IMG/VR virus record: IMGVR_UViG_3300000176_000022
Location: 1-37,594 of that record
Origin: a virus
DNA: 37,594 nucleotides
Strand: one strand, 5' to 3'
This document shows, piece by piece, positions 680 to 35,338 of the stretch; positions within the stretch are counted from its first letter, which is position 1; each line of letters opens with the position of its first letter. A program made the translations under genes and the position numbers. The notes beneath the pieces were generated by a model. That model searched no databases and was not told the DNA's origin. It saw only the letters and a program-made list of their open reading frames with translations.

Positions 680-734
680 TGCTGTTGCCCTCCCAGGCGA
701 TAGAGTAGATGGGACTGCGAATCCGTGATCTACA

Positions 735-746
735 CTATTATTTATC
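735..746 (-). promoter_or_regulatory. Candidate late promoter (GATAAATAATAG)
   Basis: On the minus strand the motif GATAAATAATAG resembles the T4 late promoter core TATAAATA and lies about 56 bases ahead of the endonuclease start. A similar GTAAATAATAG stands at 16135 ahead of another gene. This is inferred from motif likeness only; AT-rich DNA makes chance matches common. Confidence 0.25.
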
Positions 747-790
747 ATTTTTATATAGACAAATACCAATAATAGTAATATATTAATAAC

Positions 791-19443: not shown

Positions 19444-20319
19444 ATGCATGTACTAGTTACAGGTGGATTTGGTTTTATCGGCCATCATGTTGTAAGGCGG
19501 TTAAAAGATGCTGGACATGCAGTTACTATCATTGATGATATTCGATTTATCAAGCAAGATTTGTATCTTGCTCGCGGTCGTTATATGGACTTTGCATATG
19601 ATGATTGGATCAATGCAGACTGTGCGAGCACTGTAATTCAAGATGTAGATGTCATCGTTCATTTAGCATGCCATCCTAATCAAGCATCGTTCGCAAGGGA
19701 TGGCGTGGCAGCGTGGAAGAACGCTGTACAAAGCACCCTACATATGTTGACTGCTTATCCTAATGCAAAGATGGTTTATATAAGCAGCAGCATGGTATAT
19801 GGCAACTGGATTGGCACGGTTCAGGAAACTGATCCACTGCGCCCAGTCAATGCCTATGGCAAGGCAAAGTTGGCATGTGAACGATTGGTACAAGACATTG
19901 CCAATGATTGGGTAATCATTCGTCCTACCGCTGTATACGGCAAGAGAGATGATGGCAATCGTGTTATCACCAAATGGTTAAAGGCTGCTGCAGAACATGA
20001 ACCTATTCATGTTGATGATCCTATGGCAAAGCTTGATTTTACCCATGTAGAAGACCTATCACAAGCTATTTGCAATGCTGCTGTTACCCCTGTCAATAAA
20101 GTTATTGCCAATGTCAGCTTTGGTGAAGGGCGATCCCTGTTAGAAGCAGCAAATGTTATTAAAGATTGGACTTGGACCAAGAGTGAAATCATATGCGGTC
20201 GTGACTTAGCAGATGACATGCCTCGTCGTGGTGCAATGGATATCCGTAAAGCAGTGCAGTATCTTGGATATACGCCAAAAATTAATTTGGAAAACGGCAT
20301 CCAAAAACTTATTAAATGA
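19444..20319 (+). CDS. NAD-dependent nucleotide-sugar epimerase/dehydratase (SDR)
   Basis: A 291-residue extended short-chain dehydrogenase. NAD-binding VTGGFGFIGHHVV at 5-17, an acidic end to the next strand (IIDDI), SSSMVYG at 114-120 and the catalytic Tyr138-x3-Lys142 in NAYGKAKLACE. The Ser/Thr before the Tyr is in SSS. It belongs to the UDP-glucose 4-epimerase/dTDP-glucose dehydratase group; the exact sugar cannot be read from sequence. Its stop overlaps the start of the aminotransferase by 4 bases, so the two act in sequence: an oxidised or epimerised nucleotide-sugar followed by transamination. Confidence 0.9.
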   Translation: MHVLVTGGFGFIGHHVVRRLKDAGHAVTIIDDIRFIKQDLYLARGRYMDFAYDDWINADCASTVIQDVDVIVHLACHPNQASFARDGVAAWKNAVQSTLHMLTAYPNAKMVYISSSMVYGNWIGTVQETDPLRPVNAYGKAKLACERLVQDIANDWVIIRPTAVYGKRDDGNRVITKWLKAAAEHEPIHVDDPMAKLDFTHVEDLSQAICNAAVTPVNKVIANVSFGEGRSLLEAANVIKDWTWTKSEIICGRDLADDMPRRGAMDIRKAVQYLGYTPKINLENGIQKLIK

Positions 20320-21422
20320 TTAATTATTATAATCTAACAGAGCAATATGAAGATTGCAGACTTGCCATACTTGGCGGGATGGATAATGTTTATCGCAGCG
20401 GTCAATTCTATAGCGGCGAGGCACATGATCTTTTAGAAAAGTATATTAAAACGCATTATAATGACGCAGAAGTAGTACTTACTAATAGCGGCACCAGTGC
20501 GTTACAAGCCGCTCTGATGGCCTTGTACATCAAACCTGGCACTCGTGTGCTGCTTCCAGCACTGACATATGCTGCTACTGCACAAGCTGTAATAGCGGTT
20601 GGCGGTATACCTACATTTGTTGATATTGATAGCAGTTGGCTAGTAGATATTGATTTGCTAGATGATGCGTATAAAAAATATGGCGACCAGATAAGTGCGC
20701 TTGTCACAGTTGACTTGTATGGACAAGGCGTTGAACTGGATAAGGTTCGTCGTTGGTGCAACAAGCATGATGTTAAATGGATTATCGATGCTGCACATAG
20801 TTTTGGGATATGCTCAGATCAATATGACCAAACTATTGCTGATGCAATTTGCCTAAGTTTTAATCCTCTTAAAAATTTTGGTGGAAGTGGTGGCGGTGCG
20901 CTTATCAGCAAATCTATACATTCAACAATTATGCAAGCAGTGTGCACCGTTGGAAAAACAACTACTGGTTCAAACGGAAATATAGAATTACATGGGCTTA
21001 ACTTTCGTATGCTATCCACACAAGCTGCTACTTTAGTTTATAAAATTTATTATTACGCAGAAATGATTCCAAAAAAGATGGCAATATGCCAATTGTATTA
21101 TAACCATTTTAGAAATTATCCAGACAAAGTAGATTTACCTATTCGCAAACCATGGGGAACATGGAATTATTATTCGTTTTCTATTGCGCCGCAACGACAA
21201 GAAAATGTCAAATCAGCGTTAAAAGAAGCCAACATTCAGTATAGCAGTCACTATGCCAAGGCGCTTAACCGTGAAGATTTTGTAAAGTCTTATGGATACC
21301 AACCATGTCCAACTGCTGAAAACATTACTAATAACCAGCGCGTTATAAGTTTGCCAAGTCACTGGCATCTTTCTGATGCTGATGTTAATGTTATTATTAA
21401 AACTGTTATGGATTCACTGTAA
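20316..21422 (+). CDS. DegT/DnrJ/EryC1-type sugar aminotransferase
   Basis: A 368-residue PLP enzyme. SGTSALQAALMAL at 58-70 is the phosphate-binding segment, IIDAAHSFG at 156-164 holds Asp158 (contacts the pyridine nitrogen) and His161, and Lys186 in SFNPLKNFGGSGGG is the Schiff-base lysine. Such enzymes put an amino group on a keto-sugar nucleotide, as in aminosugars of surface polysaccharides. It pairs with the epimerase upstream. It is the last plus-strand gene; its stop overlaps the 3' end of the opposite-strand 584-residue gene by 17 bases, with no terminator between. Confidence 0.92.
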   Translation: MINYYNLTEQYEDCRLAILGGMDNVYRSGQFYSGEAHDLLEKYIKTHYNDAEVVLTNSGTSALQAALMALYIKPGTRVLLPALTYAATAQAVIAVGGIPTFVDIDSSWLVDIDLLDDAYKKYGDQISALVTVDLYGQGVELDKVRRWCNKHDVKWIIDAAHSFGICSDQYDQTIADAICLSFNPLKNFGGSGGGALISKSIHSTIMQAVCTVGKTTTGSNGNIELHGLNFRMLSTQAATLVYKIYYYAEMIPKKMAICQLYYNHFRNYPDKVDLPIRKPWGTWNYYSFSIAPQRQENVKSALKEANIQYSSHYAKALNREDFVKSYGYQPCPTAENITNNQRVISLPSHWHLSDADVNVIIKTVMDSL

Positions 21423-23160
21423 GACGCAAGTAGTGCTCATACAGCCAATCCCATTCGCTTGTCAACATTAATGCTTCTTCGTTATCGCCACATGCAGCAT
21501 AATATTCTTCGGCGTGTCTAACTGCATACTTTTGCCACATAGAATCTTTGCCTTTAGCAATATTACGCCAAGACCACAGTCGATATTCATTCTCAATACT
21601 TGGATTATTTTTACTAAAATGAAGTATTTTAACAACTTCACGAAATGCTGTACGCCAAGTTAACCAAGGATCATCTTCTAAATTAGTTTCGCTTATGGTT
21701 ATTGGCACGGTCGTGTGGCGTTGAGCTAGTGTCATGTCAAGACCGCCTGTGTTCTTATGCAGTAACTTAGAATGATATGCGATAGGTGCCATATGTCCAT
21801 ATATCAAACCTGTATTAAGATTATGATTATGAAAAATATAATGTTTAGGTTCTTGCCAAAAATCTGGTTGCCAATTTAAATCTTTGAAATTTTCTTTCAT
21901 ATTGCATTTAGCAAAAACTGCAATAAACCAAATAGTATCGCTTCTTATAGCAGCAGTTTTATATGCTTTCAATCTGCCGTTAACGCCACTTAATATTTTT
22001 GCTCTTGGGCATAGCGTTTTTAATTTTATCCAGTTTTCTTCTGCACAACTTTCATCGTTGTGAATAAAAATTACATCCACAGGAATATCAAAACCATATT
22101 CTGGATAGCGCAGCAGATGCGGGTATTCATATATTTCTTTTTCAACAATACAATCACGAGGAACAAGGCAGCTACTATTGCTGCGATTTAAACTAACTAC
22201 TGGTCGTTTTTCCCATAAACAAACATCTGGATAATCTATTACTCCAGTAAAAGAATATAATGTGTATATTGATTTGTTTCTAGGCGAGTTATTTAAATCC
22301 CATGCTAGACAATTTTCACTGACATTATACACGGGCCATCTTTTTCTTTTTACAGGATCATGGGTAAAGTTGTAAGAAGGATTCCATTCGCCAAGATAAG
22401 TTGGAACATGAATTAAAAATGTGTCGCCTTTTTCACATGTGCCGCTTGGCCAGCAATGTATTTGATGCTCTTCGCCTTCTTCTGGCAACCAAGTAAAATT
22501 AAATTCATCATAGTCGCATACATCACTGACTACCCATAGCCAAGGTTTAGTTGCTCGTTTTAAAGCTAACTTCAACGCTTCTTCCATCGTTGTGATTAAT
22601 CGAACTTTATAATCATGGTTTGGTAACGGATGGGTGTTAGTATCGATACAACAAATATCATAGTACAGTCCATCATAAGTTAGGTTAGCGGCATGATATT
22701 TTATATTTGTGCTACTTCTGCTAAGCGTAGTATAGCTCAATCGTTCTTTGCCAAGCATGGTAAATTCATGGTTGTATCCCCAATCCCATACGCTTGGAAA
22801 CCAGTTAAAATTAAAAGTAGAATAGTCTATTAGTGGGTCTTTTTTCCACTGCCATAGTTTGCCATTGGGTTGATATAAGATAGGCAATAAACCGCTATGG
22901 AATACTTTTTCAGTATTGTCAAACTCTTGATTGATTGGCACAAGCCATGTAGTCAGACAGTCTGAATTATCATGACTTGCCCATGCATGCATAAAATGCT
23001 GTTGATGTCGATTTGGAAGATAGCGCCAATTAAAAGAAGAATAATCTACTGCACGATGACAGAGCCATACATATTCAGTTCTGCTGTTTTTCTTGGCTTC
23101 TTCAATTAGCTGTTTAATATCGGTACAATCATCATAATCGTACCAATGTTTATCAAACAT
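21406..23160 (-). CDS. Repeat/GT-A-like fusion protein (glycosyltransferase-like)
   Basis: A 584-residue protein. The N-terminal part carries three copies of a repeat with D-Y-x2-F-(N/E)-x2-W-(L/F)-P followed by a His/Trp stretch: DYSSFNWRYLP near 39, DYSTFNFNWFP near 112 and DYDEFNFTWLP near 217. The C-terminal part (about 368-530) aligns with the 312-residue protein encoded at 30762-31700: VDVIFIHNDES with LDCIFLSYKEP, NTGLIYGHMAPIAY with INGLCYGNGGISSW, and WRTAFREVVKI with WQAGFREGVKL. Where that protein has the metal-binding DGDN, this one has FAKCN, so classical metal-dependent transfer is doubtful. Similar proteins occur in cyanophage-like genomes. It ends the operon and overlaps the aminotransferase gene. 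Confidence 0.7.
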   Translation of the reverse strand: MFDKHWYDYDDCTDIKQLIEEAKKNSRTEYVWLCHRAVDYSSFNWRYLPNRHQQHFMHAWASHDNSDCLTTWLVPINQEFDNTEKVFHSGLLPILYQPNGKLWQWKKDPLIDYSTFNFNWFPSVWDWGYNHEFTMLGKERLSYTTLSRSSTNIKYHAANLTYDGLYYDICCIDTNTHPLPNHDYKVRLITTMEEALKLALKRATKPWLWVVSDVCDYDEFNFTWLPEEGEEHQIHCWPSGTCEKGDTFLIHVPTYLGEWNPSYNFTHDPVKRKRWPVYNVSENCLAWDLNNSPRNKSIYTLYSFTGVIDYPDVCLWEKRPVVSLNRSNSSCLVPRDCIVEKEIYEYPHLLRYPEYGFDIPVDVIFIHNDESCAEENWIKLKTLCPRAKILSGVNGRLKAYKTAAIRSDTIWFIAVFAKCNMKENFKDLNWQPDFWQEPKHYIFHNHNLNTGLIYGHMAPIAYHSKLLHKNTGGLDMTLAQRHTTVPITISETNLEDDPWLTWRTAFREVVKILHFSKNNPSIENEYRLWSWRNIAKGKDSMWQKYAVRHAEEYYAACGDNEEALMLTSEWDWLYEHYLRLTVNP

Positions 23161-24274
23161 ATCGTTTATAACCTGGCATTAGATAGTTAATTTGTCGTTG
23201 CTCGGCATCATCGTCCGCCCAACTATAATCATACACTGCCTTAATACCATCTACCTCAATACTATAGATATCTAACATAGAACTCATCATTTCCCATATT
23301 TTAAAAATGTCATGAGTTCCAAAACTACGCTCTAGATCAACATGTCCAAGTTCTAAGTGCCCAAGGCTTAACATAATATCATTTGAATCAAATCCTTGGC
23401 GATCTAACCATATATAATATTCATCAACTTCTTTTGTATGCCAAGAATGTATCCCATAGATAACATCTCTGCCCCATTCTATGTCAAACTCTCCACTATA
23501 GTATTGCAAATGTGTGATGGCATCACAAGTTGCTTTATCTAAATCAGGTGCATCCTCATCATGAAATACCTCAAATAAAGTTTTACCAATTTGTGTCCAA
23601 TGCATATAAACATGTGCAAATCGACGATCATATCCATTTTCAATAAAACCCTTGCGATGTTCTGGTGTTAGATTATATCGCATGGCATTTAAAAAAGTTG
23701 TTATCTGTGATGGGCGAACCCAATCTGGTGCGTACACTTCTTTACGCAAACTTAAACACAGTGTTTCAATCTCATGACACAAATTATTAATTTGTCTAAT
23801 ACTATATTTTACTTCTGGCGTTGCTAACTTATAATATGGACTAAGATTTTCCACAGTTCCCTGTAGGTGCTCAAAATAATTATGAACAACATTCATGACA
23901 GCATGGTTTGGTCCACCGCCTCGTTTGCCATCTTCATCTATACCAGTAAAAGGCAACATAATATCCGCAGCAGTATAATTGGTACGAATATCAAAAGATG
24001 CTAATCCTTGAGATTGCCAAACGCCCAATTCACTAAATGCCCAGATTCTAGTAGTATGTTTAGATAATTCGCTGGCAAGATAATCTAAATTTCTTTGAGT
24101 TTTAGGCCATCCATGCCAACAATAATTTTTTTCAACAGGACTGTTCTTTGTTAACTCTTTTTTCAACGCATCAACCCAATCTCTTGCTAATTGACTTAAA
24201 TTAGGTTTAATATAATAAGATAATTTATCATCCTTGTTTAAAGGATTTCTTAATGTTACAATTACTTCACTCAT
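23153..24274 (-). CDS. Phage protein of unknown function (373 residues)
   Basis: I chose the ATG at 24274: GGAG lies 6 bases ahead and the ATG overlaps the stop of the upstream radical SAM gene (ATGA). An earlier ATG at 24292 would add six residues. The protein is helical and rich in His, Trp and acidic residues: NHAVMNVVHNYFEHLQGT near 122-139, RQINNLCHEIETLCLSL near 158-174, HVYMHWTQIGKTLFEVFHDE near 221-240 and LGHLELGHVDLERSFG near 302-317. These look like metal- or cofactor-lining helices, but I cannot name a family; only one ExxH is present, so a classical di-iron site is not supported. It is locked in the operon between radical SAM genes and the fusion protein. Confidence 0.75.
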   Translation of the reverse strand: MSEVIVTLRNPLNKDDKLSYYIKPNLSQLARDWVDALKKELTKNSPVEKNYCWHGWPKTQRNLDYLASELSKHTTRIWAFSELGVWQSQGLASFDIRTNYTAADIMLPFTGIDEDGKRGGGPNHAVMNVVHNYFEHLQGTVENLSPYYKLATPEVKYSIRQINNLCHEIETLCLSLRKEVYAPDWVRPSQITTFLNAMRYNLTPEHRKGFIENGYDRRFAHVYMHWTQIGKTLFEVFHDEDAPDLDKATCDAITHLQYYSGEFDIEWGRDVIYGIHSWHTKEVDEYYIWLDRQGFDSNDIMLSLGHLELGHVDLERSFGTHDIFKIWEMMSSMLDIYSIEVDGIKAVYDYSWADDDAEQRQINYLMPGYKRYV

Positions 24275-25572
24275 GATATACTCCGCCACCATGCCAACAC
24301 ACTTGGGCTAGCATTTAAAATATCTTCTATTGTTATTTTAGCATCTTTTCGTATAGATTCCAATTTTAAAATATGTTTTTTTCCTTGAATTGCTTCTCGC
24401 TTGTAGGTATCAGGAAACTGCTCTTCAAAAGTAGGTCGAGTTTTGAGATGTTCTAAGGTGTCCCATAAACTTTGTGTACGATGTGTAATGAGTGGCTTAA
24501 TCCGTTCTTGTATATCCATTAATAGCGGTGCTAGCACCGTTCTAGGCAGTGCCAGTGGACTTAAGAGAATATCAGGAGAAAAAGCAAATACTACTTTGCT
24601 CAATAATGAAACATTAAGATCATCAACGAGACCAATAATATTGGCAAGGTCAAATAAACCAGGTAAAGTAAGAGTAAAGTCAACACGCATTTGGCGAGGG
24701 TTTCGCTGATGCTGTATCCCCTGTCGAAAATCAACGAGCCAATCATTATAATTAAGACCAGTTCTAATATACTCACCTATCGCTCCTGTTCCATCTAAAC
24801 TTGCACATATTTCCCAATGTGGAAAATTGTCTAATAATTCCCATAGCGTACTTTTGTTATCTTTACAATAACTAAGATTTGTATTATATCTTACACGAAC
24901 TTGGTCTGCATAGTCAAGTTCTATTATTCGACGCATGAATGTCCAGTGCTCATCATACAGCAGTGGCTCGCCGCCTACCCAATAGATTTCACGCACGGTT
25001 TTGTTTTCAATAGCCGCACGAAACTCTGGTATGACTATATCACGAGTAAAATCACGAATAGCATGGCGGTTCTTTGGCTGCATCCAATGGTTCTTTGGAT
25101 TTGTTAGATCAATCATATCGTTTTTACGAACTTCAACTTCCCATGCCGAACTTAGCATATCGCCACACATACGACACTTGAAGTTGCATACATTGTTATA
25201 ACGATAGTCCCATGATATAGGCTCTAAGGTTGTGTAGCCATTAGCATCCGTATTAGCCACTGCAGCATCTCGTAGATGACCAAAAAGATGTCCAAAGTAA
25301 TCACGATATACAGAAGTGTTAAGTAACTTTTTATCGCAGACCTCACATGCTGATGGAACTTCACCAGCCAACCATTGCTTTCTAATCGTTCTAATATGTT
25401 CGCCATTCCACCAATCCTTTAATGTGAGCGGCGTAAACTGTCCATCACCACCAGCCGTATCAATATACTGTTTGAAGTTCTGCGCAGGTTCTCGTGACGC
25501 ACAGCACAGTCGCCGTTCACCTTGTGGTGAAATATAGGTGTGCGTAAATGGCGCTAAGCAAAAATCATTCAT
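24271..25572 (-). CDS. Radical SAM protein 5 with N-terminal SPASM-like cysteines
   Basis: A 433-residue radical SAM enzyme. The core has CNFKCRMC with Cys129, 133 and 136 (CX3CX2C, binds the 4Fe-4S cluster that splits SAM) and GGEP at 200-203. Ahead of the core are Cys5, Cys23/24, Cys76 and Cys79 in FCLAPFTHTY, LCCASRE and ACEVCDKK: the order C-x17-CC ... C-x2-C of a SPASM/twitch auxiliary cluster, but placed before the core. The C-terminus (LESIRKD...NASPSVLAWW) is a weak version of the end shared by the five. It overlaps the upstream gene by 8 bases. Substrate unknown; family members modify peptides or sugars. Confidence 0.88.
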   Translation of the reverse strand: MNDFCLAPFTHTYISPQGERRLCCASREPAQNFKQYIDTAGGDGQFTPLTLKDWWNGEHIRTIRKQWLAGEVPSACEVCDKKLLNTSVYRDYFGHLFGHLRDAAVANTDANGYTTLEPISWDYRYNNVCNFKCRMCGDMLSSAWEVEVRKNDMIDLTNPKNHWMQPKNRHAIRDFTRDIVIPEFRAAIENKTVREIYWVGGEPLLYDEHWTFMRRIIELDYADQVRVRYNTNLSYCKDNKSTLWELLDNFPHWEICASLDGTGAIGEYIRTGLNYNDWLVDFRQGIQHQRNPRQMRVDFTLTLPGLFDLANIIGLVDDLNVSLLSKVVFAFSPDILLSPLALPRTVLAPLLMDIQERIKPLITHRTQSLWDTLEHLKTRPTFEEQFPDTYKREAIQGKKHILKLESIRKDAKITIEDILNASPSVLAWWRSIS

Positions 25573-26728
25573 ATCCTATTGCCGCCGCTATTTCTGGATG
25601 ATAATCACTAAATTTTTGTTTGCGTTGAGCATCGCTATTTTTTAATGTTTGAACAAGTTTAGTACAATCACTGCCTTCGCCTTGATTCATAAAAAGTAAT
25701 AGATTAGTAACTTCACTTGAATATGGACCGACATATGCTTTAAATTTACTATTAATAAGTTCTTTTGCAGTATCATTTAATCTGCTAATACTAAAATGCC
25801 AAGCATCATGCAGAACATTAAAATATACATAGTCAAATTTTTGTTGGGCAATCCATTCACACATTTCATCAATATAATAAAAGTTCTGCACATTAGAAGT
25901 CATGCATAATTGTAATTTAATATTTTTATTGTCATCACGAAGATCATACAAGCGTTGAAGATTATCCATTGCCTTGTCCCAATTTGCGCCATATCGTTGA
26001 TATTCAAATCGAGGACCAATATCATCTACACTAACTGCTATCTCAACCATCTTAAAATGAGGCCAAATTTCTAATCCACGCTTTGGAAATGTGGTAAGAT
26101 TAGTATTATAATGAATTTCAATATCCTTGGCATACCCCATTTCAACTGCAATTTCTAAAAGAGTAAAATGCTCGTCAATTAAAAAAGGTTCTCCGCCAGT
26201 AAATTCAAAGTATCGCGAAGTTGCAAGTAATTGTGTTAAATCTTCCCAAAATCTTTTTGCTTCGCGAGGCCAACGACCTTTTTCAAGATTATCTTTAGCA
26301 GTTTGATTGCCATTGTAGATATCAATTTCTTCTTGTGCCCATTTTGAACTACTAAAGCTACCGCATATACGGCACTTAAGATTGCAAATGTTTCCAAGTT
26401 TTAAATCAAGAAAGATAAGACTTCCGTCTGTATTCTGCGTAAACTCTGAATTACCTAATAGTTGCCGCAACCTAGCATGACTATGCATTCTTTTACTAGT
26501 TCTGCCGCTTGCTTCTTCTGCCCAACAACGATTGCAGTTTGCAGGTTTTTCGTTATTTAAAAAACTTTGACGAAGATTATTCATATAAGAACTATTAAAG
26601 GCTTCGGTCAAAGTATTTGTTTTAAGATCAATATCTGGTATTGTTTCATAACTTAAACAGCATACTTTGCATTTACCCATCGGGTCTGCTTCAATAGAAA
26701 CAAATGGCAACACACAGAAATTATCCAT
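25565..26728 (-). CDS. Radical SAM protein 4 with N-terminal SPASM-like cysteines
   Basis: A 387-residue radical SAM enzyme. Core CNLKCRIC with Cys115, 119 and 122, and GGEP at 178-181. N-terminal cysteines: Cys5 (FCVLPF), Cys20, Cys23/24 (KVCCLS), Cys65 and Cys68 (NCNRCW). The section LTEAFNSSYMNNLRQSFLNN between them matches the helix that precedes the last cysteine pair of SPASM domains. Near the end QRKQKFSDYHPEIAAAI is the motif shared by the five. It overlaps neighbours on both sides by 8 bases. The same subfamily as proteins 3 and 5 by its paired CC. Confidence 0.88.
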   Translation of the reverse strand: MDNFCVLPFVSIEADPMGKCKVCCLSYETIPDIDLKTNTLTEAFNSSYMNNLRQSFLNNEKPANCNRCWAEEASGRTSKRMHSHARLRQLLGNSEFTQNTDGSLIFLDLKLGNICNLKCRICGSFSSSKWAQEEIDIYNGNQTAKDNLEKGRWPREAKRFWEDLTQLLATSRYFEFTGGEPFLIDEHFTLLEIAVEMGYAKDIEIHYNTNLTTFPKRGLEIWPHFKMVEIAVSVDDIGPRFEYQRYGANWDKAMDNLQRLYDLRDDNKNIKLQLCMTSNVQNFYYIDEMCEWIAQQKFDYVYFNVLHDAWHFSISRLNDTAKELINSKFKAYVGPYSSEVTNLLLFMNQGEGSDCTKLVQTLKNSDAQRKQKFSDYHPEIAAAIGYE

Positions 26729-28022
26729 TTAAATACCTTAATTCTGGCACAATGTCTAACAATTTTTCTCCACGGATAGTATCTAATTTATTTGTTCTAT
26801 CCCAAAATTTCGGTATAAGATGTGATTTATCATCTGCCATCATAAAGTTAACTGCACTTTCAAAGCCAGTCACGGCTCTTTTTAAATTATCAAGTGGTTT
26901 AAGCCATTCAATATGTTCTAAGTACATTTCTTGGATGTCTACTTTGCATTGAAATGGCAATATATCAATCCTAAAAAAAGGTGCGTCTTGCAAAATATTA
27001 ACATTTAAATCTTGTGGTTTTATGAAACCTTTCTGTACCCAGTCACGATGAAAACTTGGTAGTTGCCAAACATTCATTACACTCAGGGTAGGACTAATAT
27101 AAAAATCAACCTGTGGACATATTCGCAACATTTCTTCACGATTGCGCTCAGTTTGTGCCCAATCAGTGCCTTTACGCATTAATTCTGCCAGCGGACCCAT
27201 TGCATCAAGGCTGGCACCTACACAAACATTAGAAAATTCATTCCACAACTCTAAAACATTTTGTTTTTTGTAGCGAAGTTCACTGAAATTAGTATTGTAA
27301 ATAAGTCTAACCTTATTCATTCCTTTTTTTAATAATGCATTGAGAATTTTATAATGTTCTTCCATTATAAGTGGTTCTCCGCCAGCAAAATAAATGTGTT
27401 CAACATAATCTAAATGTGGCTCTAATTGTTCCCATATATCTAATTGAGTTCTTCCAGCGTATTCTATTCTTTTACTATTTTTTTTAAAATAATCAACACT
27501 TTTTTCAGTCTCTAGCAATTTAACTTGGTCATCATACCAATTGCTACTAAAAATATGACCACAGCTACGGCATCGAAAATTACATAAATTTGAAAAACGA
27601 ATATCCCAGTACGATAAAGTTAAATCTTCAAGATGTCCATCTTCTAGTGTTTTATCAACGCGCTTAATATTATGACCAAATCTTTTGTTACTACTATTGC
27701 GCATGCTGAAAAAACCAGCATCTTCTTGCTCATAACACCTCACGCACGAACCACATTTAGTTTCAGTGACCATGTTAGTTCTAGTTTTTTTCATGGAATC
27801 GTTATTCCAAACTTCTTTTATTGTAGATTCGCGCAAATTACCAACTGGATAATTCATTTCAGAATTGCAACACACATATGCTTGCCCCGTAGGAAATGCA
27901 TGAAGATGTGTCCAAGGCAACATACAAAAAGTTTTACTTTCCATAAGTAAAAATTTTTGTCTTTCGGTTAATTTATTTAAGCTAATAAATTCTGGTGTTC
28001 GGTCATTGTAATCATAAGTCAT
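26721..28022 (-). CDS. Radical SAM protein 3 with N-terminal SPASM-like cysteines
   Basis: A 433-residue radical SAM enzyme. It shows the permuted SPASM module most clearly: FCMLPWTHLHAFPTGQAYVC (Cys33 to Cys51/52), then PVGNLRESTIKEVWNN at 59-74, and KCGSCVRC with Cys90, 93 and 96. Standard SPASM domains have the same elements in this order but behind the radical SAM core. Core: CNFRCRSC with Cys147, 151 and 154; GGEP at 214-217. C-terminal motif LDTIRGEKLLDIVPELRYL. A 30-residue N-terminal extension is specific to this copy. It overlaps both neighbours by 8-11 bases. Confidence 0.9.
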   Translation of the reverse strand: MTYDYNDRTPEFISLNKLTERQKFLLMESKTFCMLPWTHLHAFPTGQAYVCCNSEMNYPVGNLRESTIKEVWNNDSMKKTRTNMVTETKCGSCVRCYEQEDAGFFSMRNSSNKRFGHNIKRVDKTLEDGHLEDLTLSYWDIRFSNLCNFRCRSCGHIFSSNWYDDQVKLLETEKSVDYFKKNSKRIEYAGRTQLDIWEQLEPHLDYVEHIYFAGGEPLIMEEHYKILNALLKKGMNKVRLIYNTNFSELRYKKQNVLELWNEFSNVCVGASLDAMGPLAELMRKGTDWAQTERNREEMLRICPQVDFYISPTLSVMNVWQLPSFHRDWVQKGFIKPQDLNVNILQDAPFFRIDILPFQCKVDIQEMYLEHIEWLKPLDNLKRAVTGFESAVNFMMADDKSHLIPKFWDRTNKLDTIRGEKLLDIVPELRYLNG

Positions 28023-29367
28023 TGTACCATTCTTTCAATTCTGGGAATGTATTAATAAAATCTTTATTGCGCCTCTGGTCGTATTGTTGATAAAATTGTT
28101 TAAAATCTTTCTGCAATACATCCATGGAACTAGCACCAGCATGCGGCGCTTCAGTACTATTTAAGTATTCTACAAGGCGCTTAATATGTTCTATCTCCAT
28201 TTGATGCAACCAATGGTTATCGCCAAGGTTATCTAAAAATTTTTGCAACCTCGTTGCACAACCTTGTTTAATTTCTGCTGGCATAACTAATGGACTCTGG
28301 AAACTTGGAAACCGCAAGATATTAAGAGTAACTGTTAAACTATCACGACCATATGCTTGTTTAAAATCTAACATATGCGCAAGGAAATCAGGAAGTTTGG
28401 TTAAACATAGCCCATTAATAGTTGCCATTACATGCAGTTGCTTTACTGCACCGCTGCTATATAGTTTGACCATATTGTCAAACCACTGATAATAATTTAA
28501 ACCATCACGAATATATTCAGCTTGGGCAGTCATGCTTTCACAACTGGTATAAACTTCAATATCCATACCGCGAACAGCATCTATAAATTCATCTAGCTTC
28601 TTAGGTTCTAATCCAAGATTACTATTGATAGCAATCTTAGTATTACTTTTGCCGCGATTGTTCTTAAACCATTCTAACAGTTTCCAAGTATGTCCGCTCA
28701 TAAGCGGTTCACCGCCCGTAATACGCAACTCACGAAGAGTCTTATGTAGATCACTTTCCCACCATTTAAAGAATGCTTCTACATATGGATTAGTATCGGT
28801 ATATCCATAAAGCTGACTGCCATCATGAGGATGCGTAAAATGATTACGCCCATCGCTGTGAAGCCCGATATAACTGCCATTCGTCTTAATATCTCGGACC
28901 CAGGTCGTGCTAAATGCAGGATTACAATAAGAGCAGGCAAAATTGCAAGTGCGGTCAAAAGCTATCTCCAATGTTCTTAAATTTACATCACTTTCACTTG
29001 GGAGGTTAAATGCTTCATTTAACTCTTCCTCGCTGAATATCATACTTTTATAAGGGCGATCACTGATGGCAGTTGTGCTAGTATCTTCTATGCGCCAGCA
29101 ATATTCACAACCACTTGGTCGTTCACCCTTTTGCATCTGTAGACGCTGTGCTTTCTTTTCTGGTGTATTATGCAGCGCAGCAGGATTATTCATTACCTGT
29201 TCTACGCTTACTTTATGTGGCAGCGGGTGATGACAGCTTGTAGTCTGTCCACTACCTAACCAAATGGTTGCATTGTACCACTTAGCGCCACAAAAAGATG
29301 CACTTTTGCTATCTAACACACGCTGTTTATATTCTTGAAATGTTTCGTCTGGTTTCTTACTTCGCAT
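28012..29367 (-). CDS. Radical SAM protein 2 with N-terminal cysteine module
   Basis: A 451-residue radical SAM enzyme. Core CNFACSYC with Cys141, 145 and 148; GGEP at 218-221. The N-terminal module differs from proteins 3-5: FCGAKWYNATIWLGSGQTTS then CHHPLPH (Cys26 and Cys45, a single Cys instead of CC) and CEYCW (Cys87, Cys90), with PAALHNTPEKKAQRLQMQKG between them. The same pattern is found in protein 1, so these two form a second subfamily. The C-terminus YDQRRNKDFINTFPELKEWY is the shared motif in full. The start at 29367 overlaps the upstream gene by 11 bases; Shine-Dalgarno is weak, so translation is probably coupled. Confidence 0.88.
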   Translation of the reverse strand: MRSKKPDETFQEYKQRVLDSKSASFCGAKWYNATIWLGSGQTTSCHHPLPHKVSVEQVMNNPAALHNTPEKKAQRLQMQKGERPSGCEYCWRIEDTSTTAISDRPYKSMIFSEEELNEAFNLPSESDVNLRTLEIAFDRTCNFACSYCNPAFSTTWVRDIKTNGSYIGLHSDGRNHFTHPHDGSQLYGYTDTNPYVEAFFKWWESDLHKTLRELRITGGEPLMSGHTWKLLEWFKNNRGKSNTKIAINSNLGLEPKKLDEFIDAVRGMDIEVYTSCESMTAQAEYIRDGLNYYQWFDNMVKLYSSGAVKQLHVMATINGLCLTKLPDFLAHMLDFKQAYGRDSLTVTLNILRFPSFQSPLVMPAEIKQGCATRLQKFLDNLGDNHWLHQMEIEHIKRLVEYLNSTEAPHAGASSMDVLQKDFKQFYQQYDQRRNKDFINTFPELKEWYNDL

Positions 29368-30787
29368 TATCTGCCCAATACTTACAGTTGTTATACCAAT
29401 CGCTCATTTCTGGAAATGTTTCAAGAAAATTTGTCTTACGACGAGCATCATGTTCATTAAAGAAACGATAGAAATCTGCTTGAACAACAGTATCATTCTT
29501 TTGATTATCGCGCTTCCAATCTACAACTCGTTGTAATTTGGCAATCTCATAATCTTTGAAGCCATTAAATCTAGTATCCAGAGTTTCAATCTGTGGACGC
29601 ATCCATTCTACAATTTTTTCTAATTTCCAAGTATAACTTTGTGGCAACTGATCTATGCATTGCCAAGCTGGTTCGCGCAAAATAGGAGTATCAAACCAAA
29701 CACGCTGATAAGTTTTGCTGTGTTTAGCACGAAGTTCAAGAATCCATTCTAGCAAATCTTGCAAGCTAGTAACATTAAGAGAGTTCATTGTAATAATAAA
29801 TGTTACGCTATTGCGATAAGGTACATCGGTCAAAAATTTCTCTACATTACTTTTCATTAAAGAAAAATCTAATCCATGACGAGCATATTCGGCGCGTTCT
29901 CCAAATCCATCAATAGAAACAAATTGCATGAAATGTTCTAACACCCCGTTGCCACACATATGCTTGACATAAGTTAGATATTTGTCAAACACATATTCAT
30001 CTTGGCTAAAGTTACTAGTTACATTAAGATGTAAATCTTTCTTTGGATGGGCTAAGACATAATCAAATACGCGATAGGTATTGCGATCCATAAGCGGCTC
30101 GCCACCTGTCATGCGGAAATGTTTTAGGTTAGGGTAGAGTTCTGGCCACCATCGCCAAAACGCATCAACATAAGGATTATCTTCCCTATTCGGTATAGGT
30201 TTACGATCACCCCGAAAGTAAGCAGGACTATTATGACTATTAGAAGTAGGATAAGCACCGTATTCATTAATTTCTTTCATCCAACTACTGCTGAATTGTG
30301 GACTACAATATGAACATTTTAAATTACAAGCACTGTTAAAATTTACTTCTACATAAGCAGGATTTGTATTCCATGTTAAAGGGTCTTGAACCAGAATCTC
30401 GCTAAACTTCTCAGCAGCCCAAGGTTCCCCTGATCTGTAATGTCGGTCGGATAGGTTTCCCGTGGCTTCAACTCGCCAGCAATATGAACATTCTTCTGGC
30501 TTCTCTCCACTAAGCATTCTTGCTCTCTGGGTCTTTTTATGAGCGGTGTTATGGAGCGCACTGGGGTTATTTTGTAACTCATTGGCATCAATCCTATGCA
30601 ACGGTGGGTGATAGCAACTATTAGTATGACCAGTTGTTAGATGCAAACTGGTCTGCTGCCACTTTGCCAGGCAAAGTGCAGGTCCAAGTTTTGTTTGCAT
30701 TTGTTCAGCACTAGACATGAAGTCGCTGTGCAGAACGCCGCTCTCATCAGCAGTAGCCTTATCACCTGAATTGTCTAGCTGTTTCAT
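29357..30787 (-). CDS. Radical SAM protein 1 with N-terminal cysteine module
   Basis: A 476-residue radical SAM enzyme. The frame is open to 30868, but ATG 30787 has AGGA six bases ahead and overlaps the preceding gene by 26 bases, so I start there. N-terminal cysteines: Cys39 (LCLAKWQQT), Cys58 (TNSCYHPPLH), Cys100 and Cys103 (ECSYCW), with PSALHNTAHKKTQRARMLSG between, nearly the same as protein 2. Core CNLKCSYC with Cys154, 158 and 161; GGEP at 228-231. C-terminal HDARRKTNFLETFPEMSDWY. It is the first radical SAM gene translated in the operon. Substrate unknown. Confidence 0.88.
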   Translation of the reverse strand: MKQLDNSGDKATADESGVLHSDFMSSAEQMQTKLGPALCLAKWQQTSLHLTTGHTNSCYHPPLHRIDANELQNNPSALHNTAHKKTQRARMLSGEKPEECSYCWRVEATGNLSDRHYRSGEPWAAEKFSEILVQDPLTWNTNPAYVEVNFNSACNLKCSYCSPQFSSSWMKEINEYGAYPTSNSHNSPAYFRGDRKPIPNREDNPYVDAFWRWWPELYPNLKHFRMTGGEPLMDRNTYRVFDYVLAHPKKDLHLNVTSNFSQDEYVFDKYLTYVKHMCGNGVLEHFMQFVSIDGFGERAEYARHGLDFSLMKSNVEKFLTDVPYRNSVTFIITMNSLNVTSLQDLLEWILELRAKHSKTYQRVWFDTPILREPAWQCIDQLPQSYTWKLEKIVEWMRPQIETLDTRFNGFKDYEIAKLQRVVDWKRDNQKNDTVVQADFYRFFNEHDARRKTNFLETFPEMSDWYNNCKYWADNAK

Positions 30788-31700
30788 GTAATGTCCTAAT
30801 AAAATCTCGCTCTGGAAGCATAATATCAATGTTATAATATGGGCGTTGATGTTTTTTATACCAAGCACTGTGCTCTGGTGAAAGTGTAACGATGTCTAAA
30901 TCTAATCTTTTACGCAAAACATTTCCGTAATGGTCAATATTTTTAAATTGATCATCTGCGGTATCGTCCCATAATTTTTCTAATTTTGTGAAGTCACGAA
31001 CTTCACGATAATCCCAACTATCATCAAACATTGTCATATATGCGCCTTGTCTTGCTCCAAGGATTGCCCATTTTCCAAATTCAACATCTGTGCCAACGCT
31101 GCACCAAATAACCAAATTTTCTCGGTTGCCTTTCCATGCAGCAGTTTCAAATTCTTCAGCAGATGGACGACGACCGCGATCAAGACATAGTTTTACGCCT
31201 TCGCGAAACCCTGCTTGCCATGCTTGTTGTGGACTATAATTTGGAACAGTTGTGCTCCATACATCATGCATTGCCCAATAATCTTTATCATAGCAAAATT
31301 CTACAACGGTTTCATCGCCGCCATCTGTAGCTTCGTGTGTTCGCATATTGGCAACAAAGTCTTTAGTCCAACTGCTGATACCGCCATTGCCATAGCAAAG
31401 ACCGTTTATAGCGTTCTTTGCTCGCCAACGAAATACACAGTGTTCACTGTCTGGCGCAAGGCGTAATCGTTGATTAAAAAATTCAGGATCAGGTTGATTA
31501 TCTCCATCAATTAATATGAATCTATCAGTTTCGCTAGCTAATCCAGCAGCCTTGTGTGCTGCATCACTGCCTTCTATGCCATGGACGCGCTTTGCCCATG
31601 GCGCAATGCTTCGCACAAATGCCCAATTAGCATCCGCATTTGGTTCTTTGTAACTTAAAAATATACAATCTAATTCTGCAATGTCAATAATATTAGTCAT
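30762..31700 (-). CDS. GT-A fold glycosyltransferase-like protein
   Basis: A 312-residue protein with a Rossmann-like start (LDCIFLSYKEPNADANWAFV, about 9-29), a nucleotide-loop-like APWAKRVHGIEGSDAAHKAA and the likely metal-binding DGDN at about 70-73 in RFILIDGDNQPDPEFF. This matches GT-A enzymes that use a DxD motif with a divalent metal and a nucleotide-sugar. Later motifs NAINGLCYGNGGISSW and QAWQAGFREGVKL are shared with the C-terminal part of the 584-residue protein. It lies directly upstream of the first radical SAM gene and overlaps it by 26 bases. Sugar and acceptor unknown. The aminosugar made by the epimerase and aminotransferase is a candidate donor. Confidence 0.72.
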   Translation of the reverse strand: MTNIIDIAELDCIFLSYKEPNADANWAFVRSIAPWAKRVHGIEGSDAAHKAAGLASETDRFILIDGDNQPDPEFFNQRLRLAPDSEHCVFRWRAKNAINGLCYGNGGISSWTKDFVANMRTHEATDGGDETVVEFCYDKDYWAMHDVWSTTVPNYSPQQAWQAGFREGVKLCLDRGRRPSAEEFETAAWKGNRENLVIWCSVGTDVEFGKWAILGARQGAYMTMFDDSWDYREVRDFTKLEKLWDDTADDQFKNIDHYGNVLRKRLDLDIVTLSPEHSAWYKKHQRPYYNIDIMLPERDFIRTLHETARQFR

Positions 31701-32052
31701 AATCCCATCCTATTGCTGCTGGATAATCTGCGTCCACAGCAAATTGATAATCGTTACTAAGTGTATAAAACATAGTTCCGCCTTTTATTAACTTTCTTCT
31801 AGTTGGAAGAGTGACAACTTCTCTTATGATAGTGCCATCTTTTTTAACAAGCCAATCCATAGGCGGTATACCTATATTTTCAGCGGGAAAATCTACCCAC
31901 TGACCTTCCAATTCATCCGCAGATATTATTTCACCGCGCATAGTTTCTGCATTATAATATAAACGATATTTTATTTCAGAAATAGGCGGAACTGAGTTTG
32001 CTAAACCTGCGTCTACTTCATCCCAAAAGCTGTTTTTTGAAGCCATACTCAT
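31693..32052 (-). CDS. Small protein of unknown function inside the glycosyltransferase/radical SAM operon
   Basis: A 119-residue acidic protein; ATGs at 32052 and 32046 are both possible, neither with a good Shine-Dalgarno. Middle: LYYNAETMRGEIISADELEG, then GIPPMDWLVKKDGTIIREVV and a basic TRRKLIKGG. The end is aromatic and acidic (FAVDADYPAAIGWDYD). I recognise no family. Because a radical SAM enzyme needs a substrate and this is the one small orphan inside the block, it is worth testing as a modified peptide or a carrier, but it lacks the Cys-, Gly- or Asn-rich core of known RiPP precursors. Confidence 0.65.
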   Translation of the reverse strand: MSMASKNSFWDEVDAGLANSVPPISEIKYRLYYNAETMRGEIISADELEGQWVDFPAENIGIPPMDWLVKKDGTIIREVVTLPTRRKLIKGGTMFYTLSNDYQFAVDADYPAAIGWDYD

Positions 32053-32860
32053 ATCTATCTATTAATTCATCGGTTACAAATGTTTTAAGATGATAATGTA
32101 GCGGTTTTGTTTGACGATGAAATCCTAACACTACCCCAAAATCATCATGAACTTCTGTATATATTTCTTTAGTCCAATCGGTTATTCGGATTCCTTGCAA
32201 TTGCGGTTTCATGTGAACAAAGCCAAAATTTATATTGTCAAGTGGCATGTTTATAGCACGAGCAGCTATTGCATATACTTCGTCTGTTCTGGGAGTTTCA
32301 TACCTGCAGTTTATTAGATATTCATCTCTATACCAATTCCAATCATCCATTATCATACGCATTGTATCATAAAATTTTTTAGATTGCAAATCATAACTAA
32401 AATATGTCCATGCGCTATAGATATTTGGCAGTAAACTATCGTCAAAAAGTTTTCGTTGACTGCGATTAGTGACTATATCATGATTATATGTATAAACTGT
32501 CTGCGTAAAATTCATTACATATTGAGAATATACATTCCATAACCAACTTACATCACAGGTAAACAACATATCCGCTTCTGTTTTTATAGTTTCTTTATAT
32601 GGACTACATGAAAATACTTGGGATTCGTTTTGCTGCTTTACTTTACTAGTTTCAGCTAAATCTTTTTTAAGAATAATAACTTTATCAAATATTTTTCTGT
32701 GATTATCTGTAACTTGCTCAGCGGTTTCTTTATCTACGATAATACTAAAATTTCTCACATGCGATTGTGTTAATTTACAGCTTAATGCTTGAAGATATGC
32801 CATACGAAGATAATCAACGGCAGTGCTATTCTGTGCGATACAAAGATAACCTTTGCTCAT
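32018..32860 (-). CDS. Glycosyltransferase-like protein
   Basis: A 280-residue protein. The beginning CIAQNSTAVDYLRMAYLQAL and FSIIVDKETAEQVTDNHRKI fits the nucleotide-binding half of a GT-A fold. KTEADMLFTCDVSWLW at about 92-107 could give the acidic metal motif (EAD). The rest is aromatic with HMKPQLQGIRITDWTKEIYT near the C-terminus. Similar proteins appear with glycosyltransferases in T4-like phages of aquatic bacteria, by memory. It overlaps the 119-residue gene by 35 bases and the upstream gene by 4 (ATGA). Confidence 0.6.
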   Translation of the reverse strand: MSKGYLCIAQNSTAVDYLRMAYLQALSCKLTQSHVRNFSIIVDKETAEQVTDNHRKIFDKVIILKKDLAETSKVKQQNESQVFSCSPYKETIKTEADMLFTCDVSWLWNVYSQYVMNFTQTVYTYNHDIVTNRSQRKLFDDSLLPNIYSAWTYFSYDLQSKKFYDTMRMIMDDWNWYRDEYLINCRYETPRTDEVYAIAARAINMPLDNINFGFVHMKPQLQGIRITDWTKEIYTEVHDDFGVVLGFHRQTKPLHYHLKTFVTDELIDRYEYGFKKQLLG

Positions 32861-33621
32861 AGCTGATCCTTATTCATTAAATGTAAATCAACATTAGATA
32901 AACGGTTTGCCCACTGTCTACCTTCATAATAATAAACTAACTTATTATCTTTCCAACTAATATATTCTGACCTGCCGTCGCAATTAATCAATGGATAATT
33001 TTTTAATCCATAGTCTCGTAACCCATATCCACCTGCCAAGTGACATGCGATACTAAAAATATAATCATTTCTAATAGGTTTTGTATGAAAGCCATATAAT
33101 GCCGCATAATATGCATAATGTTTTTGAATACTTTTTGCCATTTCAAATATAGTCATAGCTTCACTAGATTTATTAAAAATCATTACAGTGGCCCAATACA
33201 TAGGTATAGGACTACTATGTATCTTTTCAATTTTTGTTTTGCCTCGTGGTGCTATATCATATATTTCTTTTGCCATTAAAAAATCACGAGAAGATTTAAT
33301 ATGTGGCAATAATGAATTTGTTGAAATATAAAAATCACTATCAATTACGAGAGTACGATCATATAGCGTTAGGTCATATAACTGCGTTCTTACAAGGTTG
33401 TACCAATCTCGTGGAGGATTGTTTATAAAACCTCGTTTATTATTGATTGGTCGTTCAACAATTATTTTATTGTAATCTAAAGTAGCATCATCTGTTATAA
33501 TTGTAACAGGAATGCCTATGTATTTTTTAACACGATTAGCGGCTTCGATTGCCTGTTGCGTATAGTTGACTTCTGCTGTGTCAAACGCAACAATCAGACA
33601 ACCTTCAGAGTTGTTTGGCAT
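32857..33621 (-). CDS. GT-A fold glycosyltransferase-like protein with DSD motif
   Basis: A 254-residue protein; the frame is open from a TTG at 33657, but I take the ATG at 33621. It begins with GCLIVAFDTAEVNYTQQAIE, then IPVTIITDD and, at about 92-100, RTLVIDSDFYIS, the typical DxD strand of GT-A enzymes such as those in glycogenin-like and GT8-like families. PMYWATVMIFNKS and NDYIFSIACHLAGG follow as acceptor-side segments. It starts within the end of the 113-residue gene. Probably transfers a sugar from a nucleotide donor with a metal; donor and acceptor are unknown. Confidence 0.72.
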   Translation of the reverse strand: MPNNSEGCLIVAFDTAEVNYTQQAIEAANRVKKYIGIPVTIITDDATLDYNKIIVERPINNKRGFINNPPRDWYNLVRTQLYDLTLYDRTLVIDSDFYISTNSLLPHIKSSRDFLMAKEIYDIAPRGKTKIEKIHSSPIPMYWATVMIFNKSSEAMTIFEMAKSIQKHYAYYAALYGFHTKPIRNDYIFSIACHLAGGYGLRDYGLKNYPLINCDGRSEYISWKDNKLVYYYEGRQWANRLSNVDLHLMNKDQL

Positions 33622-33946
33622 TGCGAATCTTTGTAAACTCTTCGTATTCTGCGGCAACTTCGTTCATCACTTCAAACCAACGCTGCTGACAAATATATAA
33701 CAGTTCGTGTGGAATAACTTTGACTGGAACATCATAAGCGTCCATCATATAAATTGCACCATCATATAGATGCCAATTTGGACCAGTCCATGCATGTAAG
33801 AAAGCAATAAGTTCTTGGGTCACGATAAACATACCGTCACCATAGTTCACGGTCATTCGTGATTCAATAGCAGTATTGATGTTTTGTTTTGCCAGTTCAC
33901 GGTCATACGCTACTCTGGCTGCATCACGCAATTCTTCTGTATTCAT
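33605..33946 (-). CDS. Conserved phage protein of unknown function, first gene of the minus-strand operon
   Basis: A 113-residue protein: a helical start (ELRDAARVAYDRELAKQNIN), a conserved middle (VNYGDGMFIVTQELIAFLHA), then DVPVKVIPHELLYICQQRWF and a helical end. I know this pattern (VNY-GG-F-V-T-L-F-L and D-Y-P-V-K-V) from T4-like phages near tail fibre genes; no function is established to my knowledge. A strong promoter lies right in front, leaving six bases before the ATG. It separates the tail genes from the glycosyltransferase/radical SAM block and could belong functionally to the tail. Confidence 0.75.
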   Translation of the reverse strand: MNTEELRDAARVAYDRELAKQNINTAIESRMTVNYGDGMFIVTQELIAFLHAWTGPNWHLYDGAIYMMDAYDVPVKVIPHELLYICQQRWFEVMNEVAAEYEEFTKIRNAKQL

Positions 33947-34939: not shown

Positions 34940-35338
34940 TTATTTAATTCCAACCGCAACCTGAATAATTTGAGTACTGTTATCTTGGATATTTTCAATT
35001 GACTTGCCTAGAATACATCCATGAACATATTTCTTTGGATCAAGTTTTTCTCCAACACCAGCAATGCTACTAGTGACTACGCAATCGCCTTTTGAAATTG
35101 GTCCTTGGACGCTGCATGGAACTACTCCCATAACAGCAAAAGTCGAACAAGCGTTTAGCCCAAAATTAGTAAGCGTTAATTCAGCATCTGCTGTAGGATC
35201 AATTGCAATACCCGCGACACGAGGATCGTGTGAAGTTGTACTGATTGTTACATCTCTTTCACCGCCAAAGACAACAATACTTTGTGCTGGTATTTCTTCA
35301 TCATCATGTTGATAAAATGCTACTGATAAACTTGACAT
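34940..35338 (-). CDS. Stand-alone copy of the tail fibre C-terminal domain
   Basis: A 132-residue protein that aligns over nearly its whole length with the last 120 residues of the large fibre gene next to it: IVVFGGERDVTIS with VVEFGGEAEVTIS, RVAGIAIDP with HVAGIVSSK, MGVVPCSVQGPISKGDCVV with VGRVPCKVIGPVRKGNMMV, GCILGKSIENIQDNSTQIIQ with GSVLGKALENINDDSIQIIE, and the ends VAVGIK and VVVGVR. The gene has a good Shine-Dalgarno (AAGGAAA) and starts ten bases after the fibre stop. It may be a separate fibre tip subunit or a trimerisation cap. Confidence 0.82.
   Translation of the reverse strand: MSSLSVAFYQHDDEEIPAQSIVVFGGERDVTISTTSHDPRVAGIAIDPTADAELTLTNFGLNACSTFAVMGVVPCSVQGPISKGDCVVTSSIAGVGEKLDPKKYVHGCILGKSIENIQDNSTQIIQVAVGIK

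What the first reader, a model, noticed from the sequence alone, without database searches (positions are those of the whole stretch)
24271..30787. Five radical SAM enzymes in a row, each with the SPASM-like cysteine module in front of the core
Seen directly: each protein has one CX3CX2C radical SAM motif, a GGEP motif about 65-77 residues later, and an N-terminal set of cysteines (C-x17/18-C(C) ... C-x2-C) before the core. In protein 3 the N-terminal order PW, G, CC, GN, W, C-x2-C is that of a SPASM domain, which in known enzymes follows the core. This is a circularly permuted layout repeated five times in a phage. A phage devoting 6.5 kb to radical chemistry suggests a multi-step modification of one substrate or parallel modification of several.
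Basis: partly seen in the sequence, partly recalled or inferred. Interest (0 to 1): 0.85.

Follow-up and report, generated by a model that had tools for sequence, protein, structure and literature searches.

The report
Conserved five-enzyme radical SAM phage cassette
Large T4-like phages known almost only from metagenomes carry the same row of five different iron-sulphur radical enzymes, nearly always in the same order and just downstream of tail-fibre-type genes, which suggests a dedicated chemical assembly line, most likely decorating sugars on the virus particle or the host surface, whose product is unknown.

Summary
Five intact, overlapping genes (30787-24271, minus strand) encode radical SAM enzymes with the auxiliary-cluster module in FRONT of the core. 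That layout is not unknown: all five pass the cut-off of a curated NCBIfam family, NF033640 (N-terminal twitch radical SAM). The module is twitch-like (one expected cluster); the second half of SPASM is absent from all 394 orthologues checked.

The five are distinct classes (17-31% identical to each other). In 221 de-duplicated viral loci found through four different genes, 124 show the whole region; 102 carry all five, 101 of them in the order A-B-C-D-E, on one strand. The block includes three conserved putative glycosyltransferases, a protein with no known fold and tail-fibre-type genes. Nearby genes include carbamoyltransferase, amidinotransferase, APS-kinase-like and SGNH-type proteins. 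Viral records hold 5-21 such enzymes. Of 50,697 deposited phage records only two related Vibrio phages have recognisable, very divergent relatives.

Best reading: a conserved multi-step radical pathway, probably tailoring a glycan on tail fibres or host surface (substrate inferred; a protein substrate is the main rival). The enzymes are known in kind; the cassette appears undescribed.

The parts
29357..30787 (-). radical SAM enzyme A (first of the five), N-terminal twitch + core; subgroup AB
   Evidence: NF033640 330 bits; all 7 cysteines in 84/84 orthologues
28012..29367 (-). radical SAM enzyme B; subgroup AB (31% identical to A)
   Evidence: NF033640 302 bits; 7 cysteines in 80/80; identity
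26721..28022 (-). radical SAM enzyme C; subgroup CDE
   Evidence: NF033640 386 bits; 7 cysteines in 82/82; AF2 pLDDT 96
27735..27926 (-). N-terminal twitch/SPASM-type module of enzyme C (residues 33-96)
   Evidence: Pfam SPASM E 5e-11, profile 1-66 of 67
25565..26728 (-). radical SAM enzyme D; subgroup CDE
   Evidence: NF033640 335 bits; 7 cysteines in 79/79
24271..25572 (-). radical SAM enzyme E; subgroup CDE
   Evidence: NF033640 269 bits; 7 cysteines in 71/71
23153..24292 (-). conserved partner directly after E (fam3), no known domain; conserved His/Glu/Asp residues
   Evidence: 67/81 loci, same strand; AF2 pLDDT 88 with no PDB fold match; 78/80 loci found with it carry class E
21406..23160 (-). 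putative glycosyltransferase-like protein (fam10), last gene of the minus-strand run
   Evidence: 33 loci; no library match; GT reading is inference
30762..31700 (-). putative GT-A glycosyltransferase (fam0), invariant D-G-D-N
   Evidence: 77/81 loci; invariant D65 G66 D67 N68; no library match, so GT is inference
31693..32052 (-). small conserved protein
   Evidence: orthologues or position equivalents in related loci
32018..32860 (-). putative glycosyltransferase (fam1), paralogue of fam2
   Evidence: 71/81 loci; hhalign 99% to fam2; GT is inference
32857..33657 (-). putative glycosyltransferase (fam2), invariant D-x-D
   Evidence: 69/81 loci; D106, D108 invariant; GT is inference
33605..33946 (-). 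small conserved protein (fam5) of the tail-fibre block
   Evidence: 62/81 loci
33985..34917 (-). fibre-type, Gly/Ser/Thr-rich conserved protein (fam4)
   Evidence: 63/81 loci; 50 of 51 fam4-found loci with over 8 kb downstream carry cassette enzymes
34940..35338 (-). small protein resembling the C-terminal domain of the fibre-type protein (by eye)
   Evidence: 6 loci
35349..37592 (-). tail-fibre-type repeat protein (fam8), runs off the window
   Evidence: 48/81 loci; C-terminal domain matches virion structural / baseplate-tail pin annotations in PA5oct-type phages
20316..21422 (+). DegT/DnrJ/EryC1/StrS sugar aminotransferase, convergent with the cassette
   Evidence: Pfam E 2e-59
19444..20319 (+). 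NAD-dependent nucleotide-sugar epimerase/dehydratase
   Evidence: Pfam E 6e-34; PHROG nucleotide-sugar epimerase

Best explanation
This is a conserved viral biosynthetic cassette. Five different N-terminal-twitch radical SAM enzymes act in sequence on one substrate or one growing structure, together with the flanking putative glycosyltransferases and the novel-fold partner. Each enzyme would use its core cluster and SAM to make a 5'-deoxyadenosyl radical; the auxiliary cluster of the N-terminal twitch would bind the substrate or take up an electron; a further class-specific conserved cysteine could return a hydrogen atom, as in twitch epimerases such as NeoN and HygY. The most likely substrate is a carbohydrate, tailored by epimerisation, dehydrogenation or deoxygenation and then optionally carbamoylated, amidinated, sulphated or acylated. 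Its most likely place is the tail-fibre/receptor-binding apparatus or the host surface glycan. Shown: enzymes, cysteines, five classes, fixed order, linkage to the fibre block, sugar-tailoring neighbours. Inferred: sequential action, carbohydrate substrate, location.
For: Fixed order: 101 of 124 fully viewed, de-duplicated loci have A-B-C-D-E, and all 124 keep the enzymes on one strand. This holds whichever gene was the bait: enzyme C, the fam0 putative GT, fam3 or the fibre-type fam4. Five distinct clades, 17-31% identical within the window; orthologues score about 2-4 times higher to their own class. Invariant cluster cysteines, plus one more conserved cysteine per enzyme (A 75/84, B 79/80, C 76/82, D 76/78, E 70/71). 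Sugar setting: carbamoyltransferase in 61 loci, amidinotransferase in 28, APS-kinase-like P-loop and SGNH-type proteins in some, nucleotide-sugar epimerase and DegT aminotransferase in the window. Deposited Vibrio phage K566: a run of N-twitch enzymes beside a gene matching LPS 3-alpha-galactosyltransferase. Precedent: the radical SAM enzymes BtrN and NeoN act on aminoglycosides and HygY is a twitch epimerase (PMC10991966 and its reference list).
Against: The three putative glycosyltransferases match no library model, and fam0 and fam2 no solved structure, so 'GT' rests on DxD-type motifs read by eye. Some bacterial runs of the same enzymes (L161, L162) lie without obvious glycosyltransferases, and Elusimicrobia fuse these enzymes to TPR-like repeats, which would also fit a protein substrate. 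Many characterised SPASM/twitch enzymes act on peptides (PMC8326336). Fixed order could in part be shared ancestry: the carriers belong to one broad lineage (polymerase 59-85% identical). Cluster geometry was not measured.
Confidence: 0.5

Rival explanations
1. The enzymes modify a protein, not a sugar: the fibre-type protein fam4 or fam8 just upstream is a very large RiPP-like substrate that receives cross-links or epimerised residues from the five enzymes.
For: SPASM/twitch enzymes are prominent in peptide modification (PMC8326336); Foldseek's top matches are anSME and CteB, which modify proteins or peptides; fam4 is tightly linked to the cassette (50/51); TPR-like fusions in Elusimicrobia.
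Against: fam4 has no conserved Cys or strongly repeated acceptor motif (11 invariant positions, mostly Gly, Trp, Asn, Tyr); no leader-like precursor was seen; the neighbours are sugar-tailoring enzymes.
Confidence: 0.25
2. The pathway remodels the host's own surface glycan during infection to block later phages, not the virion.
For: Pelagimyophage authors proposed this for glycosyltransferases in their host-recognition island, where radical SAM cassettes were also noted (PMC7029224).
Against: The cassette is co-directional with, and regularly beside, fibre-type structural genes, which fits late expression and virion modification at least as well.
Confidence: 0.2
3. The five genes are a lineage-specific paralogue expansion with redundant function, kept in order only by common descent.
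For: Carriers share a polymerase lineage; extra copies are present in about a third of complete cassettes (36 of 102) and records hold 5-21 copies.
Against: Five deep classes are each kept in fixed order although the extra copies come and go; class-specific conserved residues differ; bacteria hold members of A, B, C, D and E too (L162).
Confidence: 0.1
4. The enzymes hypermodify the phage's DNA bases.
For: Radical SAM enzymes, glycosyltransferases and carbamoyltransferases occur in phage DNA hypermodification (general knowledge); a thymidylate-synthase gene lies at 18558-19442.
Against: The cassette is linked to fibre-type genes, not to replication genes; the thymidylate-synthase family is found in only 6 of 81 loci.
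Confidence: 0.05
5. Viperin-like nucleotide analogue producers used in defence or inter-phage conflict.
For: Weak matches of the core to viperin models and PADLOC pVip (best E 8e-9).
Against: Matches cover the core only, at 17-27 bits against a cut-off of 180; linkage to fibre-type genes has no place in it; the auxiliary module is not part of the viperin models.
Confidence: 0.02

Closest known systems
NCBIfam NF033640, N_Twi_rSAM (twitch domain-containing radical SAM protein)
   Same: All five match over nearly their full length and above cut-off; same order of module then core.
   Different: A subfamily model of single enzymes, named without a function; it does not describe a five-gene cassette or its partners.
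SPASM and twitch radical SAM enzymes (anSME, CteB, SkfB, BtrN, NeoN, HygY)
   Same: Same radical SAM core; first half of the SPASM cysteine pattern (CX9-15GX4C ... CX2C); nearest solved folds are anSME and CteB.
   Different: Module before instead of after the core; no second-half cysteines; solved structures match by sequence only in the core.
Radical SAM cassettes of the pelagimyophage host-recognition cluster (PMC7029224) and the T4-like contig with 12 radical SAM genes (PMC5332604)
   Same: Radical SAM genes together with glycosyltransferases and tail fibres in marine T4-like phages.
   Different: The passages read mention such genes or count them; they do not report five orthologous N-twitch enzymes in fixed order, nor the module permutation. 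Up to 21 members per record here.
Vibrio phage K566/K567 cluster
   Same: Deposited phages with several N-twitch enzymes and an LPS galactosyltransferase-like match.
   Different: About 22% identical, different gene order, not the A-E set.
Chromosomal runs in Bdellovibrionota (L161, L162, L168, L236)
   Same: Members of classes A-E side by side; L162 has eight.
   Different: Different order, no obvious GT partners or fibre genes; best relatives of enzyme C in the genome scan are 31-43% identical.

Membership tests
NF033640 N_Twi_rSAM | Whole-protein score over the curated cut-off of 170 bits | tested here: met
   269, 335, 386, 302, 330 bits
NF033640 N_Twi_rSAM | Auxiliary-cluster module N-terminal to the core | tested here: met
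   Pfam SPASM N-terminal in three window proteins (one of them just below Pfam's cut-off) and in 68 of 90 aligned members overall; A/B by profile comparison
Radical SAM superfamily | CX3CX2C and GGE motif | tested here: met
   One each in all five; CX3CX2C in every orthologue
Radical SAM superfamily | SAM cleavage by a [4Fe-4S] cluster | not testable with these tools
   Needs purified protein
SPASM domain (7-Cys, two auxiliary clusters) | CX9-15GX4C first half | tested here: met
   A 83/84, B 80/80, C 81/82, D 77/77; E keeps both cysteines but the Gly in only 7/71
SPASM domain (7-Cys, two auxiliary clusters) | CX2CX5CX3C second half | tested here: not met
   0 of 394 orthologues; so twitch-like, not SPASM
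Twitch domain | Four cysteines binding one auxiliary cluster | tested here: inconclusive
   Four invariant cysteines but no coordinates or iron content
Twitch/SPASM in solved enzymes | Module C-terminal to the core | tested here: not met
   N-terminal in all five; PMC8326336 states C-terminal only
Viperin / pVip | Whole-protein score over cut-off 180 (NF038283) | tested here: not met
   At most 27 bits
Glycosyltransferase families for fam0, fam1, fam2 | Match to a Pfam or NCBIfam GT model or a solved GT structure | tested here: not met
   No matches (PDB not searched for fam1); the functional reading stays inference
Carbamoyltransferase (fam6, in related loci, absent from the window) | Carbam_trans_N and _C domains | tested here: met
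   E 3e-38 and 2e-48
Amidinotransferase (fam13, related loci) | Similarity to solved amidinotransferases | tested here: met
   L-Arg:Gly amidinotransferase E 3.5e-19, SxtG, inosamine-phosphate amidinotransferase

The most novel reading that the evidence does not exclude
A viral assembly line of five successive radical SAM reactions builds a previously unknown natural-product-like glycan (or modified protein) on the tail fibres of a large phage lineage, using enzymes whose auxiliary-cluster module is permuted to the front, a layout with no solved structure found here and no assigned function.
Probability: 0.4. Interest if true: 0.9.

Novelty: new variant of a known kind. Interest (0 to 1): 0.72.

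Why it matters
Five ordered radical SAM enzymes in one pathway would be among the densest uses of radical chemistry known to me, and here it is in phages. The tight linkage to fibre-type genes makes a testable claim: the virion or host surface bears an unusual, enzymatically elaborated structure that probably governs adsorption. A chemist gains a family of twitch-first enzymes with no known reaction. Nearly all carriers are metagenomic, with only two divergent deposited relatives, so standard phage collections would miss it.

Tried and rejected
Measuring the distance between the twitch cysteines and the SAM cluster: model coordinates are not given to the Python box. Assigning fam0/fam1/fam2 to GT8 or another GT by Pfam, NCBIfam, PDB profiles and direct comparison with GT8/GT10-bearing bacterial loci: nothing significant. 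Identifying fam3 by fold: no PDB match, best probability 0.11; my thought of a di-metal helical oxidase found no support. fam4 against solved structures and deposited phages: nothing. A genome scan with the five-way alignment failed for lack of conserved stretches and was redone with enzyme C orthologues. Viperin-like defence and DNA hypermodification were considered and ranked low.
Full report
OBSERVATION. The five ORFs are real, intact and overlap by 8-11 bases, as in a translationally coupled run. All five match the curated NCBIfam family NF033640 (N_Twi_rSAM) over nearly their full length and above its cut-off, so the twitch-first layout is already recognised by curators. In protein C the Pfam SPASM model matches residues 33-96 over its full length, and the same stretch matches the C-terminal ends of ordinary SPASM enzymes (NirJ2, WgkB, AhbD), which is direct evidence for a permuted order. 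Proteins A and B have no SPASM hit, but their N-modules align with those of C, D and E in profile comparison (75-98%) while module-against-core controls stay below 1%. A 2021 review states that the SPASM/twitch domain is only C-terminal (PMC8326336), and a full-text search for 'radical SAM', 'circularly permuted' and 'SPASM' found no paper about this layout (its one hit, PMC5332604, is about viral genomes). The library holds open-licence papers only.

CONSERVATION. In 71-84 orthologues of each enzyme the four module cysteines and three core cysteines are invariant, and each class keeps one further cysteine in or after the core at a class-specific place (A C305, B C321, C C302, D C275, E C256; 89-99%). 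CX2CX5CX3C, the second half of SPASM, is absent from 394 of 394. This is a twitch-type module with one expected auxiliary cluster. AlphaFold2 on enzyme C gave pLDDT 96 and pTM 0.91. Foldseek's best solved relatives were the SPASM enzymes anSME and CteB at low TM-scores, as expected for a permuted chain in a sequential comparison. Predicted viral proteins matched at TM up to 0.92, mostly from uncultured phages, plus weaker ones from KVP40 and phi-pp2.

THE CASSETTE. In these loci the five enzymes recur in the window's order. To avoid choosing the answer by the bait, three other baits were used: the adjacent fam0 protein, the downstream fam3 protein and the upstream fibre-type fam4 protein. Pooled and de-duplicated there are 221 loci; 124 show the whole region; 102 have all five, 101 of them in order A-B-C-D-E; the clearly classed enzymes lie on one strand in all 124. 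Several exceptions with the pattern ABcE look like C-D gene fusions (in L075 the fusion is one 851-aa ORF), and some divergent loci have A followed by several C-type copies. A tree puts each class in its own clade (support 1.0, 0.999, 0.47, 0.89, 0.35 for A-E; C and E are weakly supported as single clades, and the best A and D clades leave out one or two members). The loci are the best-scoring ones for each bait, so the frequency applies to close and middle-distance relatives, not to all viruses.

PARTNERS. Families in most loci, all on the cassette's strand: fibre-type fam8 and fam4, small fam5, fam2, fam1, fam0, then A to E, then fam3. fam0 has an invariant DGDN and fam2 an invariant DxD; fam1 and fam2 are paralogues. 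I read the three as GT-A glycosyltransferases, but no library or structure match supports this. fam3 folds with fair confidence (pLDDT 88) and matches no solved fold. fam8's C-terminal domain matches proteins annotated as virion structural or baseplate wedge/tail pin in PA5oct-type phages. Sugar-tailoring neighbours are frequent: carbamoyltransferase (61 loci), amidinotransferase (28), APS-kinase-like and SGNH-type proteins, and in the window a nucleotide-sugar epimerase and a DegT aminotransferase.

CARRIERS. The window is a linear IMG/VR record with family B polymerase, 5'-3' exonuclease and vWA genes. Its polymerase is nearest, at about 45%, to the jumbo phages Atu_ph07, Phosso and GAP32. 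Of 31 long carrier records (66-347 kb), 22 have the T4 gp23 capsid protein and 18 have a polymerase 59-85% identical to the window's, so this is one broad lineage. Records hold 5-21 N-twitch matches each. Among 50,697 deposited phage records only Vibrio phages K566/K567 match enzymes C or A, at about 22-25% identity, with several N-twitch enzymes beside a gene resembling an LPS galactosyltransferase. In bacteria the best relatives of C are 31-43% identical (Bdellovibrionota, Elusimicrobia, Bacteroidota); one Bacteriovoracaceae contig has eight members, including all five classes.

MECHANISM. Shown: the catalytic motifs, the invariant auxiliary cysteines, five separate classes, fixed order, linkage to fibre-type genes and sugar-tailoring neighbours. 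Inferred: that the five act in sequence, that the substrate is a carbohydrate, and where the product ends up. Radical SAM enzymes acting on aminoglycosides (BtrN dehydrogenation; NeoN epimerisation with Cys249 as hydrogen donor; HygY, a twitch epimerase whose cysteine mutation reveals dehydrogenase activity; PMC10991966 text and reference list) give the closest chemical precedent, and the class-specific conserved cysteines would suit it. The main alternative is modification of the fibre protein itself. I give the carbohydrate reading 0.5 and the protein reading 0.25.

NOVELTY. The enzyme family is known and curated; radical SAM genes near glycosyltransferases and fibres have been noted in marine phages (PMC7029224; PMC5332604). 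I found no description of an ordered five-enzyme N-twitch cassette. I therefore file it as a new variant of a known kind with a high interest score, not as categorically new.

Noticed in passing
L162:6040-18036 (Bacteriovoracaceae): Eight N-twitch radical SAM genes close together on a bacterial contig, including members of all five classes, with a sugar-nucleotidyltransferase-like gene nearby (by eye) and a small secreted-looking protein.
   Followed up: partly
L172 and L177 (Elusimicrobia): Tandem N-twitch enzymes fused to long TPR-like N-terminal repeats (564-1128 aa), six in a row on one contig.
   Followed up: no
record of L024 (G011, 346,856 bp) and of L030 (G012, 155,922 bp): 21 and 19 N-twitch radical SAM matches in single viral records.
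   Followed up: partly
window 23153-24292: Conserved partner fam3 has a fairly confident model and no solved fold match; conserved His/Glu/Asp positions look like a metal or catalytic site.
   Followed up: partly
L009, L010, L012, L013, L019 and others: Enzyme C often carries an extra N-terminal stretch of about 130-140 residues of unknown kind.
   Followed up: no
L026:542-2002: A B12-binding radical SAM protein lies upstream of the cassette in some loci, a further class of radical enzyme.
   Followed up: no
window 53-769: Reads by eye like a GIY-YIG endonuclease; not tested.
   Followed up: no
L001 (IMGVR_UViG_3300000553_000171): Enzyme C and the conserved partner fam3 are 100% identical in protein to the window's, and the gene order matches; probably the same virus population.
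   Followed up: no
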